A stretch of 64,000 nt of DNA, from assembly GCA_013348845.1 (NCBI GenBank), contig CP054675.1, forward strand, positions 248,001 through 312,000. The letters run 5' to 3'. A program made the position numbers and the translations under genes. Below are positions 35,755-39,945 of the stretch, one piece after another. The notes under the pieces are model-generated. The model did no database searches and was not told the DNA's origin. It was given only the letters and a program-made list of their open reading frames with translations. The stretch is from Candidatus Tepidiaquacella proteinivora. GTDB taxonomy: Bacteria; Bacteroidota; Ignavibacteria; Tepidaquicellales; Tepidaquicellaceae. Each line of letters begins with the position of its first letter. The first letter of the stretch is position 1.

Positions 35755-36504
35755 CTAATTCAGATTTTTCTGCCTGAAAATTTCATATAAAATAATTCCG
35801 GCAGAAACAGATACATTTAAAGAATCTATTTTTGCAGTTAAAGGAATTCTTATTACTGAATCGCAGAGGGTAAGAATTCCTTTTCTTATGCCTTTACCTT
35901 CACTACCCAGAACTAAAGCCATTGGTTTCTTATAGTCTATTTCATATAAGTAGTTATTAGTCTTAACATCAGCGCCAACAATGAAGTAATTCTTTTCTTT
36001 TAATAATCTGATTGTATTAATTAAATTAGTTTCTTTTGCGATAGGGATTAATTTTGCTGTACCTGCTGAAGACTTTAAAGAAGTATGATTAATATCAGCA
36101 GAATCATGTTTAGGTATAATTATCCCATCAGCTCCAAGGCATACTGCCGAGCGTATAATTGCCCCGAGATTATGTGGGTCTGTAATAGAATCCAGTATTA
36201 CAATTAATGGGTATGGCATTTTTTCAAACTTTTGTAGCATTTCTTTTAGGGAAGCATAATGAAAATTTTTAATAAAACCTAATACCCCCTGAGATACTCC
36301 TTCAGATTTATTTTTTCTGCTAAAGTATTTTACAAATCCTTCTTTACTCAATGTCATTATGTTAATTCTATTAGTCTCAGCTAATTTATATATCTCTTTT
36401 ATCCTATCATCATTCTTTAATCCTTTTAGGATTATGATTTTACTAAATTCTTTTGGTTCAGTCCTGAGAATTTCTAATATCGGATTTTTTCCAATTACAA
36501 GCAT
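35755..36504 (-). CDS. rlmB: TrmH-family RNA 2'-O-methyltransferase, RlmB-like
   Basis: SPOUT-fold rRNA methyltransferase of 249 residues, most like the enzyme making Gm2251 in 23S rRNA. N-terminal substrate-binding domain (about 1-75) and SpoU domain with motif I 'DPHNLGAIIRSA', motif II 'VLGSEGKGI' and motif III 'IPLTAKIDSLNVSVSAGI'. Divergent from rsmI; the two starts are very close. A second SpoU gene at 50878 differs in sequence. RlmB is the best fit; another 2'-O site is possible. Confidence 0.88.
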   Translation of the reverse strand: MLVIGKNPILEILRTEPKEFSKIIILKGLKNDDRIKEIYKLAETNRINIMTLSKEGFVKYFSRKNKSEGVSQGVLGFIKNFHYASLKEMLQKFEKMPYPLIVILDSITDPHNLGAIIRSAVCLGADGIIIPKHDSADINHTSLKSSAGTAKLIPIAKETNLINTIRLLKEKNYFIVGADVKTNNYLYEIDYKKPMALVLGSEGKGIRKGILTLCDSVIRIPLTAKIDSLNVSVSAGIILYEIFRQKNLN

Positions 36505-36578
36505 TGTATTTATTATTTTTTTTGTTTTTCAATATAATTATATTAATTTTTAAATTGACTGAAAAAAATTTTTTTAAA

Positions 36579-37295
36579 TTGGATAATAAAGATTTTGAAA
36601 ATTTTTTGTGCATAAATGAAGAAGAACTTTTTGAGAAAACTTTGTATGTGGTATCAACTCCAATCGGAAACCTAAATGATATATCATTCAGAGCATTACA
36701 TATTTTAAAAAACTGTGATTTAATTGCGGTTGAAGATACAAGAAAGGCATCAATTCTTCTGAACCATTATGGAATAAAGAAAAAGATGGTAAGTTATTAT
36801 TCTAAAAATCAGATTTACAGGACTGATTATATTATAAATGAGTTACTATCAGGAAAAAAAGTTGCTTTACTTTCAGATGCGGGAACCCCTTGTATTTCAG
36901 ACCCGGGGAGTATTCTGATTTCAAAATGTATTGAAAATGATATTCTGATAAAACCTATACCGGGAGCAAGCTCATTAATTCACTCGCTGGTAATTTCCGG
37001 ATTCAATTCAAACCGATTCTTTTTTCAGGGATTTCTTCCCCATAAGGGCAGAGAGAATATTTTGAAGAATTTAGAAAAAATTAGAATGGTTATAATTATT
37101 TTTGAGTCAAAATATAAAATTAGAGCTACATTAAAAGATTTAATGATTTACTTCAAAAACAAAGAAATTGCTGTTTGCAGGGAATTAACAAAAGTTTATG
37201 AAGATATTTACAGGGGTAAATGTAAAGATATCGATATTAATAAAGTAAAAGAAAAAGGAGAATTTGTTATAGTTATTGATAACAATTCTCCCTAA
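36579..37295 (+). CDS. rsmI: 16S rRNA (cytidine1402-2'-O)-methyltransferase RsmI
   Basis: Tetrapyrrole-methylase-fold enzyme methylating C1402 of 16S rRNA near the decoding site. Motifs: 'LYVVSTPIGNLNDISFRAL', 'AVEDTRKASILL', 'LLSDAGTPCISDPGS', 'PIPGASSLIHSL' and 'FFQGFLPHKGRE', all typical. The start is uncertain: no ATG exists in frame near the conserved beginning. I chose TTG at 36579 (238 residues); TTGs at 36504, 36555, 36606 and 36642 also exist, and 36504 would overlap the divergent rlmB start. A hairpin follows the stop. Function firm, start weak. Confidence 0.9.
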   Translation: MDNKDFENFLCINEEELFEKTLYVVSTPIGNLNDISFRALHILKNCDLIAVEDTRKASILLNHYGIKKKMVSYYSKNQIYRTDYIINELLSGKKVALLSDAGTPCISDPGSILISKCIENDILIKPIPGASSLIHSLVISGFNSNRFFFQGFLPHKGRENILKNLEKIRMVIIIFESKYKIRATLKDLMIYFKNKEIAVCRELTKVYEDIYRGKCKDIDINKVKEKGEFVIVIDNNSP

Positions 37296-37317
37296 AATTA
37301 TTTAAAGTTGTAAAATT

Positions 37318-37337
37318 CCATCATTATTAAATGATGG
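37318..37337 (+). terminator. Hairpin terminator after rsmI
   Basis: CCATCATT-ATTA-AATGATGG forms an 8-bp stem with a 4-base loop, followed 6 bases later by a run of T (GTTTTTT). It lies between the convergent ends of rsmI and the 30-codon minus-strand gene and may work in both directions. Confidence 0.65.
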
Positions 37338-37347
37338 TCAGTGTTTT

Positions 37348-37440
37348 TTAGATTTTCTTTTTATGCCGGTTCTTGCGGAGTCTTTTTTTCCTTTTATGAG
37401 TTGACATTTTTGCTCTTTTTCTTTTTCTGCCACAAGGCAT
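37348..37440 (-). CDS. 30-residue basic protein, AURKAIP1/COX24-domain (ribosomal type)
   Basis: A very short gene; the product has 17 Lys/Arg in 30 residues, starting 'MPCGRKRKRAKMSTHKRKKR' and ending 'LRKNRHKKKI'. This matches the small conserved Bacteroidota proteins annotated as AURKAIP1/COX24 domain-containing (typical start MPSGKKRKR, end KRLRKNRHKKK). The domain's mitochondrial relative is ribosomal protein mS38, so a ribosome-bound role is likely. An AAGGAG sequence lies 7 bases before the ATG, a good Shine-Dalgarno sequence, rare in this window. It follows the HU gene by 15 bases and ends just before a hairpin, so it is probably the last gene of the TPR-sppA-HU operon. Confidence 0.88.
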   Translation of the reverse strand: MPCGRKRKRAKMSTHKRKKRLRKNRHKKKI

Positions 37441-37455
37441 CTTTTTACTCCTTTT

Positions 37456-37743
37456 TTATTTTACTAATGAATCTATAACTGCTTTTTTAAATTCTTTTGA
37501 TACTTTGAAATAAGGTATATATCTCTTTTTCAAATCTATCGTTTCACCAGTCTTGGGATTTCTTGCCTTTCGAGCTTCTCGTTTCTTGTTTTTAAATGTA
37601 CCAAAACCTCTTATTTCGATGCTGTCGTCATTTTTTAAACAATCAATTATAATACCTATGAATCCTTCTATTATTAATTCCACTTCCTTTTTACTTATGC
37701 CGGTTGCATCAGAAATTTTCGCTACAATTTGAGCTTTTGTCAT
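37456..37743 (-). CDS. hup: HU/IHF-family DNA-binding protein
   Basis: Nucleoid protein of 95 residues that bends DNA as a dimer. N-terminal helices ('AQIVAKISDATGISKKEVEL'), then the saddle and arm with 'IEIRGFGTFKNKKREARKAR' and 'NPKTGETI', the HU/IHF signature, then a terminal helix 'SKEFKKAV'. The start overlaps the sppA stop (ATGA), so expression is coupled to the protease gene. HU or an IHF-like subunit cannot be told apart by eye; the arm 'RNPKTGE' is standard. Confidence 0.95.
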   Translation of the reverse strand: MTKAQIVAKISDATGISKKEVELIIEGFIGIIIDCLKNDDSIEIRGFGTFKNKKREARKARNPKTGETIDLKKRYIPYFKVSKEFKKAVIDSLVK

Positions 37744-38705
37744 TTTCTTATTTCATATTTATATTGTAAAATAGGTTTGTTTAAATATTCTTCTTTTATC
37801 AGATTGTTTAATTCACTTAATCCAATCTGAGAAATTTTTTCTAATAATAAATCAAGAAAATATGTTTTCTTTTTTTCCTTAATTATAGTTGGTTCTCCTT
37901 TGATGTTGCTTAGTTCTGCTGCTATTTTTATTGCATCATCTAATGTACCTAATGTATCTATCAATCCTATTTTTAATGCCTGTCTGCCTGTATATACCCT
38001 ACCGGTAGCAACATTTTTTAATGTATCAATATTAATATTTCTTTCTTTTGCAACTATTTCTAAAAATAATTCATAGCTATCATTTATTATATCCTGTAAA
38101 TATTTTTTGTCTCTTTCATTTACATCTCTGAATGGATTTCCGGTATCTTTAAGGTCGCCACTGGTAATGGTTACATCCTTAATACCAAGTTTTTCCGCTA
38201 AATCTCTTATAGTTATGTATTGAATAATAACTCCGATACTGCCAACAAGAGAACTTGGATTTGCTACAATTTTATTTGCTCCGCATGCTACATAGTAACC
38301 GCCACTTGCTGCTACAGTACCAACTGATACAACGATAGGTTTTCCGCTATCTCTGGTTTTTTTAACTTCTTCATACATTTCGTGAGTTGCAGCTGAACCT
38401 CCACCAGGTGAGTCGATTCTTAAAACTATTGCTTTTATTGATTTATCTTCCCTGAACTTTTTTATCTGTTTTACTAAAATATCCGGTGTTATTATTGTGT
38501 AGTCTAAATCAACTATGGCAATTTTTTCCTTCCCTGATTTAATCACTTCATATTCATATTCAGTAGTACTTATACCAGAAAATATTGATTTAAATATTAG
38601 TAAAACAATAATGATTCCAAATAAAAAACATAAACTTAAAAATGAAATTAAGACTATCCAAAATGCCTTTCTGTTTTTTCTTTTATTTTGTTCTGGTTGA
38701 GTCAT
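37740..38705 (-). CDS. sppA: Signal peptide peptidase SppA (short form)
   Basis: Membrane serine protease (S49) that degrades cleaved signal peptides. At 321 residues it is the short, single-domain form (as in Bacillus), not the 67-kDa E. coli form. One N-terminal membrane helix (about 15-38); catalytic Ser134 in 'VAASGGYYVACG' and Lys186 in 'TSGDLKD'; the 'IDSPGGGSAA' and 'SLVGSIGVI' elements around the active site are intact. It overlaps the upstream TPR lipoprotein gene by one base (TAATG) and the HU gene by four. Confidence 0.93.
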   Translation of the reverse strand: MTQPEQNKRKNRKAFWIVLISFLSLCFLFGIIIVLLIFKSIFSGISTTEYEYEVIKSGKEKIAIVDLDYTIITPDILVKQIKKFREDKSIKAIVLRIDSPGGGSAATHEMYEEVKKTRDSGKPIVVSVGTVAASGGYYVACGANKIVANPSSLVGSIGVIIQYITIRDLAEKLGIKDVTITSGDLKDTGNPFRDVNERDKKYLQDIINDSYELFLEIVAKERNINIDTLKNVATGRVYTGRQALKIGLIDTLGTLDDAIKIAAELSNIKGEPTIIKEKKKTYFLDLLLEKISQIGLSELNNLIKEEYLNKPILQYKYEIRK

Positions 38706-39625
38706 TATTCTTTTATTAATTTCTCCTTAAGTTTCATTATTTCTTCAGCTTTTTCTTCTTCACCTAATGCCTGATAAGAAGAATATAAATATTCATATAA
38801 ATCTTTGAGCAATTTTTCATCTTTACTATTTAATAATCTCTCAAAATATACATTGGCTTCTTTTAGATATGGTTTATAATCTTTATCTTCTTTAGAAACG
38901 ATTAACGCTTCCTGATAATAGTTAATACCAATATTCAATATACTCGCTTCATAATATTGATTATCTGTTGGTAATGCTTTTAATTCCATTACTTCTTTAA
39001 GAGCATTAACTGATTCTTCGAATTTCTCATCAAGTCTTAACTTTAAGCCTTTTTTATAAATAGTCTTAGCTAAGTTAACAGCATCGTCTTTAGAATTTGT
39101 TTTTCCGTATGGAATTCGATAAAACTCAATCGCTTTATCATAATTTTCTAAATAATAATAAGCATCTCCTGCGACCCTGTAACTTTCAAGGCTATCTGGA
39201 ATTATTGCAATCGCTGCAAGGGCGTAATCTAAAGAAATAATTAGATTATTTGCAGTAGTCGCTGAATCTTTTCCAACAGCAGAGTTAAAATATTTTATAC
39301 ATTCATTAAATTTTAGTTTCCAGTATTCAAGTCTTTCATCTTCATACTGTTTGGAAACTTTCATAGCAGTTTCAAAAGATTTTCTTGCTTCATCATATTT
39401 CTTCAATTCAGTTTGACTAACAGCCAACATATACCAACCTTCGGCATCATTTTTATCAATTTCTAATCCTTTTTTAAGATTAATTTCTGCCTTTTCAAAA
39501 TCGCGTTGCTGAAACGCAAGTTTTCCGGTGGTTAATTCTGCTGATGCGCAACTCCATAGGATAATACCCATTAGTAATAATGCAACACCCGAAAACAAAA
39601 AAAGAATCTTAGTTGAATTTTTCAT
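38705..39625 (-). CDS. TPR-repeat lipoprotein
   Basis: Lipoprotein of 306 residues from the ATG at 39625 (an in-frame TTG at 39637 is a weaker start). GGAG lies six bases before that ATG. Lipobox 'ILWSC' with Cys26, then about six tetratricopeptide repeats, the clearest 'EKAEINLKKGLEIDKNDAEG' and 'YDEARKSFETAMKVSKQYED', and a Lys/Glu-rich end. Such proteins scaffold complexes at the periplasmic face. First gene of the minus-strand operon with sppA and HU; partner unknown. Confidence 0.83.
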   Translation of the reverse strand: MKNSTKILFLFSGVALLLMGIILWSCASAELTTGKLAFQQRDFEKAEINLKKGLEIDKNDAEGWYMLAVSQTELKKYDEARKSFETAMKVSKQYEDERLEYWKLKFNECIKYFNSAVGKDSATTANNLIISLDYALAAIAIIPDSLESYRVAGDAYYYLENYDKAIEFYRIPYGKTNSKDDAVNLAKTIYKKGLKLRLDEKFEESVNALKEVMELKALPTDNQYYEASILNIGINYYQEALIVSKEDKDYKPYLKEANVYFERLLNSKDEKLLKDLYEYLYSSYQALGEEEKAEEIMKLKEKLIKE

Positions 39626-39945
39626 TTTTGACTCCAAATGTTTGTTAAAAAATATTCATAAATATAAATAAAATAATATATTTATGCAATTAAGGAATGA
39701 ATTGTTAAAATATTCCATCTAATTTTTTACGTTCAATTTTTAAGAGAGTATTGAAATTATTTTCATTGATAACTATTGATGATATAAATAAAATTATTTT
39801 TTACAATAGCGTTTTCTCAAATAGGAGTGATTTCTTTTGATTGATTAAATTAACAGATAAAATTCTGTATAAATATATAATCTCTCCTGATTTAATGAAT
39901 TTCAATTTAAATTTATTTTTAAATTTAACTTAGTTAGATTGTAAT
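39626..39945. other. Intergenic region between two divergent operons
   Basis: About 320 bases, strongly AT-rich, between the TPR-lipoprotein operon (leftward) and the PASTA operon (rightward). No open frame of note, tRNA or hairpin with a GC stem was seen. It should hold promoters for both operons. A TTAGATTG box lies about 5 bases before the PASTA start; no TTG partner is clear. Confidence 0.5.

What the first reader, a model, noticed from the sequence alone, without database searches (positions are those of the whole stretch)
37348..37440. A 30-codon ribosomal-type gene with a strong Shine-Dalgarno sequence
The product is over half Lys/Arg and matches the Bacteroidota AURKAIP1/COX24-domain proteins, relatives of mitochondrial mS38. 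It is short enough to be missed by gene finders. It has AAGGAG at 7 bases from its ATG, whereas most starts here have none. In Flavobacteriia, a Shine-Dalgarno on a ribosomal protein gene (rpsU) has been tied to autoregulation through an otherwise hidden anti-Shine-Dalgarno; a similar control is possible here.
Basis: partly seen in the sequence, partly recalled or inferred. Interest (0 to 1): 0.6.

Follow-up and report, generated by a model that had tools for sequence, protein, structure and literature searches.

The report
Ribosomal protein bS22 with conserved Shine-Dalgarno
The 30-codon gene encodes a known tiny ribosomal protein (bS22), and the ribosome-binding motif in front of it is real and conserved across its bacterial class, but an ordinary ribosomal gene (rpsB) has an equally conserved motif, so nothing points to a special control circuit here.

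Summary
The ORF at 37440..37348 (-) encodes a 30-aa protein, 17/30 Lys/Arg, with AAGGAG 7 nt before its ATG. It is an orthologue of ribosomal protein bS22, already seen in Flavobacterium johnsoniae and Borrelia ribosome structures. It occurs in 289 of 296 Bacteroidota genomes. The window is from class Ignavibacteria. The Shine-Dalgarno (SD) is not chance: 48 of 54 orthologues in relatives pair with the 16S tail at -8 kcal/mol or better, against 8% of own-genome ORFs, 2/30 rpsT, 4/38 HU and 4/26 rpsR. The conservation is clade-limited: it is absent at bS22 in all ten Flavobacterium-type genomes examined. The proposed hidden-anti-SD autoregulation is not supported. rpsB carries an equally conserved SD (22/30), about 8% of genes here have a correctly positioned SD, the bS21 residue Tyr54 that helps hide the anti-SD in Flavobacterium is Arg in all 45 relatives, and the bS22 SD (-8.8 kcal/mol) is far weaker than rpsU's (-14.2). 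Most likely it is an ordinary functional SD on one of a small set of genes. A better lead for autoregulation is rpsU in this class: UUG start (38/45) plus an extended SD (median -13 kcal/mol).

The parts
37348..37440 (-). bS22 (AURKAIP1/COX24-domain, mS38-like) 30-aa small-subunit ribosomal protein gene
   Evidence: phmmer vs PDB: Borrelia bS22 8fmw_V E 4.7e-8, 9i5v_10 E 9.7e-8, F. johnsoniae 7jil_5 E 6.4e-7, full length and ungapped; 55/59 relatives; 289/296 phylum genomes
37448..37453 (-). Shine-Dalgarno AAGGAG, 7 nt before the ATG
   Evidence: sequence; pairing -8.8 kcal/mol with the family 16S tail GAUUACCUCCUUUCU; conserved in 48/54 orthologues at <= -8
37456..37743 (-). HU-type DNA-binding protein, upstream in the same direction, 15 nt before bS22; its own start has no SD
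   Evidence: PF00216 E 8.6e-32; SD absent here and in 34 of 38 HU genes compared
37740..38705 (-). SppA-like signal peptide peptidase (S49), overlaps the HU start by 4 nt
   Evidence: PF01343 E 1.7e-52; same order sppA-HU-bS22 in family relatives
37318..37337 (.). hairpin just past the bS22 stop; scores as terminator for the convergent rsmI-like gene on +
   Evidence: only terminator-like site in 36900-38900; 0.6 expected by chance

Best explanation
The gene encodes bS22, a 30-aa basic helix that sits in the small subunit between 16S helices h2, h27, h44 and h45 and touches the large subunit (shown for orthologues, inferred here). It follows the HU gene by 15 nt in the same direction and is probably co-transcribed with sppA and HU. 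Its AAGGAG is an ordinary, functional Shine-Dalgarno site that pairs with the 16S tail and raises initiation on a very short gene. Ignavibacteria keep such sites on a minority (about 8%) of genes, including rpsB, rplL, rplV and rpsU, because their anti-SD is probably less tightly occluded than in Bacteroidia. No gene-specific feedback is needed.
For: Identity; binding site in orthologues: PMC10618245, PMC10085706. SD conserved 48/54 vs 23/294 own ORFs, and 13/20 vs 34/309 local ORFs class-wide. SD retained although upstream neighbour and spacing change between families. SD motifs positioned at -14..-11 across the genome. Same conservation at rpsB, 22/30 (Fisher p 0.12 against bS22), but not rpsT, HU or rpsR. 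Intact anti-SD CCUCCUUUC in all 12 relatives read. bS21 Tyr54 replaced by Arg in 45/45.
Against: The own 16S gene is not in the assembly, so its tail is inferred from relatives. Strong class-wide maintenance on a 30-codon gene could reflect regulation as well as efficiency. Anti-SD accessibility in Ignavibacteria is inferred from one residue; I know of no ribosome structure from this class.
Confidence: 0.8

Rival explanations
1. One reading: bS22 autoregulates its translation through its SD. 30S subunits lacking bS22 would have a freer 16S 3' end (bS22 contacts h44/h45, next to the tail) and would translate bS22 mRNA preferentially.
For: SD conserved across the class; bS22 binds h44 and h45, which directly precede the anti-SD tail; precedent for rpsU/bS21 (PMC9976891).
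Against: rpsB shares the conserved SD; bS22 pairing is usually -8 to -13, weaker than the < -13 kcal/mol typical of autoregulated rpsU; no SD at bS22 in Flavobacterium-type genomes where the anti-SD is known to be hidden. No report known to me of bS22 affecting the tail.
Confidence: 0.06
2. SD regulon of bS21: bS21-deficient ribosomes in Ignavibacteria favour all SD genes, so bS22, rpsB and others are co-regulated with rpsU as a set.
For: rpsU has an extended SD and UUG start in this class; bS22 and rpsB have conserved moderate SDs.
Against: In F. johnsoniae a weak SD (AGGA) did not respond and only strong or extended pairing did (PMC9976891); Tyr54 of bS21 is absent here, so bS21 control of the tail is itself untested.
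Confidence: 0.12
3. The SD-like motif is a chance purine run in an A-rich spacer.
For: The spacer is A-rich, and a few orthologues (e.g. L058) have only a purine run without a real SD.
Against: Fisher p 1.6e-34 vs own-genome ORFs (phylogeny not corrected); conserved while spacing and flanks change; neighbours HU and rpsT lack it.
Confidence: 0.02

Closest known systems
Ribosomal protein bS22 (F. johnsoniae PDB 7jil chain 5; Borrelia 8fmw chain V; also Mycobacterium and Cutibacterium)
   Same: Full-length ungapped match, MP-C/S-G-[KR]KRKR start, THKRKK..R.NRHKK core, about 30 aa, over half basic
   Different: Nothing of substance in sequence; here it carries an SD, which F. johnsoniae-type orthologues lack
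Mitochondrial mS38 (AURKAIP1/COX24, PF08213) and eukaryotic eL41
   Same: Same ribosomal pocket according to PMC10618245; weak COX24_C match to residues 5-29
   Different: PF08213 8.3 bits, below its 23-bit cut-off; mS38 is longer
rpsU/bS21 autoregulation by SD in Flavobacteriales (PMC9976891)
   Same: A ribosomal protein gene with an SD in a phylum that mostly lacks SDs
   Different: Moderate rather than extended SD, anti-SD-occluding residue absent, motif shared with rpsB, no evidence of feedback

Membership tests
bS22 ribosomal protein | Short, highly basic peptide matching solved bS22 chains over full length | tested here: met
bS22 ribosomal protein | Single-copy, near universal in the phylum | tested here: met
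   1 copy in own genome; 289/296 genomes, 138/139 genera
bS22 ribosomal protein | Bound in the h2/h27/h44/h45 pocket of the 30S subunit | not testable with these tools
   shown for orthologues in PMC10618245 and PMC10085706
COX24_C (PF08213) | Score above gathering cut-off | tested here: not met
   8.3 bits vs 23; NCBIfam: no hit
SD-dependent autoregulation (rpsU type) | Exceptionally strong SD, below -13 kcal/mol | tested here: not met
   -8.8 in the window; median -9.3 in 54 orthologues
SD-dependent autoregulation (rpsU type) | Anti-SD sequestered by bS21 (Tyr54), bS18 and bS6 | tested here: inconclusive
   Tyr54 is Arg in 45/45 bS21; the other pocket residues were not tested
SD-dependent autoregulation (rpsU type) | SD restricted to the autoregulated gene | tested here: not met
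   rpsB 22/30 SD; about 8% of genes
SD-dependent autoregulation (rpsU type) | Translation rises when the encoded protein is missing | not testable with these tools
   needs a depletion experiment

The most novel reading that the evidence does not exclude
In Ignavibacteria a small set of ribosomal genes (rpsU, rpsB, bS22) keeps conserved SDs as a regulon read preferentially by ribosomes whose 16S tail is freed, by loss of bS21 or bS22, coupling late 30S assembly to synthesis of late-binding proteins.
Probability: 0.1. Interest if true: 0.6.

Novelty: new member of a known kind. Interest (0 to 1): 0.25.

Why it matters
bS22 is easily missed by annotation because it is so short. The class-specific conservation of its SD shows that translation initiation differs inside Bacteroidota: Ignavibacteria keep working SDs on a defined minority of genes, whereas Flavobacteria have almost none. 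That makes Ignavibacteria a useful comparison for how the anti-SD became hidden.

Tried and rejected
NCBIfam gave no hit for the peptide and Pfam only a sub-threshold COX24_C match; PDB sequences settled identity. 16S was searched in the own genome: none assembled, so relatives were used. RNA fold around the start: no unusual structure (z 0.39). Rfam over 36000-39800: nothing. Jha et al. 2021 (PMC7797042) is not held and is used only through PMC9976891. First rpsU start calls included a few wrong starts; redone by anchoring on residue 1.

Full report
Observation. The ORF is at 37440..37348 on the minus strand, 30 codons plus TAA, product MPCGRKRKRAKMSTHKRKKRLRKNRHKKKI, 17 of 30 residues Lys or Arg. 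AAGGAG lies 7 nt before the ATG.

Identity. Against all PDB chains the peptide matches bS22 of the Borrelia ribosome (8fmw_V, E 4.7e-8), an AURKAIP1/COX24-domain chain in 9i5v (E 9.7e-8) and the F. johnsoniae ribosome chain 7jil_5, deposited as 'S22' or 'L38' (E 6.4e-7), all over essentially the full length without gaps. The Pfam COX24_C match is far below cut-off. The own genome has one copy, 55 of 59 relatives have it, and 289 of 296 sampled Bacteroidota genomes, 138 of 139 genera, have it. Substitutions against 29 relatives concentrate at third codon positions (94/42/349). In orthologues the protein sits between 16S h2, h27, h44 and h45 and touches the 23S rRNA (PMC10618245; PMC10085706). 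This is a known protein.

Organism. The window is therefore from class Ignavibacteria. This is an inference from relatives.

Surroundings. The order sppA, HU, bS22 is kept in the same family and partly in the next. bS22 starts 15 nt after the HU stop. In other families of the class the upstream neighbour is a protein with a zinc-ribbon-like N-terminus (by sequence pattern only), yet an SD is usually still present. A hairpin at 37318-37337 follows the bS22 stop and scores as terminator for the convergent rRNA methyltransferase-type gene. No known structured RNA lies there and the start region is not unusually folded.

Is the SD more than chance? The 16S tail in six same-family genomes is GGAUUACCUCCUUUC, and the tails of all 12 relatives read keep ACCUCC; the own 16S is not in the assembly. 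Pairing was computed for -22..-3 upstream of starts. In 54 orthologues, 48 reach -8 kcal/mol, median -9.3; in 294 own-genome ORFs 23 do, and with mutated tails 1-2%. SD hexamers in the own genome peak at -14..-11, 25 hits against 3 for reversed motifs, so the minority of SD genes is real. Across the class, 13 of 20 bS22 genes reach the threshold against 34 of 309 neighbouring ORFs in the same stretches. Sequences are related, so the Fisher p values overstate independence, but the motif persists while spacing, flanks and neighbour genes change.

Where it is absent. In ten Flavobacterium-type (family f32) genomes none has an SD at bS22, and in 19 other phylum members outside the class 1 of 19 does. 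One other family (f34) has GGTGAT-type complementarity at several bS22 genes. So the SD is lineage-specific.

Is it special to bS22? Control genes in the same set of relatives: rpsT 2/30, HU 4/38, rpsR 4/26 at <= -8, but rpsB 22/30 at <= -8 and 30/30 at <= -6. Own-genome SD genes include, by my reading of the sequences, glmS, fusA, gyrA, rpsB, rplL, rplV, ferritin and secY. bS22 thus belongs to a set of SD genes and does not stand alone as rpsU does in Flavobacteriales (PMC9976891).

Is the anti-SD hidden here? In F. johnsoniae the tail is held by bS21, bS18 and bS6, and Tyr54 of bS21 matters (PMC9976891). The equivalent residue is Arg in all 45 bS21 sequences from this class. PMC9976891 reports that Chlorobia also lack Tyr54 while other contact residues are conserved, so occlusion is not excluded. 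The premise of a hidden anti-SD is therefore doubtful in Ignavibacteria, not disproved.

Mechanism. Shown: gene, protein identity, SD, its conservation, its sharing with rpsB. Inferred: co-transcription, SD-16S pairing in vivo, efficient initiation as the purpose. Autoregulation through bS22-less ribosomes remains possible because bS22 contacts h44/h45 beside the tail, but no evidence singles it out.

Side result. rpsU in this class uses UUG (38 of 45) or GUG (5) and has an SD of median -13.0 kcal/mol, 23 of 45 at <= -13; in the window's genome AGAAAGAGGTAAT, -14.2. That fits the published rpsU autoregulation better than bS22 does, and suggests the pattern extends to Ignavibacteria with an unusual start codon.

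Noticed in passing
L079 (own genome G000:C1:318403, outside the window) and L071-L100, L137-L151: rpsU (bS21) starts with UUG in 38/45 and GUG in 5/45 relatives and has an extended SD (median -13.0 kcal/mol; own AGAAAGAGGTAAT). A conserved weak start codon plus extended SD fits bS21 autoregulation in Ignavibacteria.
   Followed up: partly
L252, L253, L255-L258, L261, L262: In phylum family f34 and a neighbour (f49), bS22 genes carry a different complementarity to the 16S tail, (A)GGTGA(T), just before the start; its identity as an SD and the family's name were not settled.
   Followed up: no
G198, G244, G248 (family f44, genus g134): Three near-complete Bacteroidota genomes of one genus lack any detectable bS22, in a phylum where it is nearly universal; possible true loss.
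   Followed up: no
L273, L274, L284, L289, L290, L300, L302, L305, L315: bS22 nearly identical to the Ignavibacteria form occurs in records named Calditrichota and Delongbacteria, mostly with SD-like motifs; some MAG names may be wrong.
   Followed up: partly
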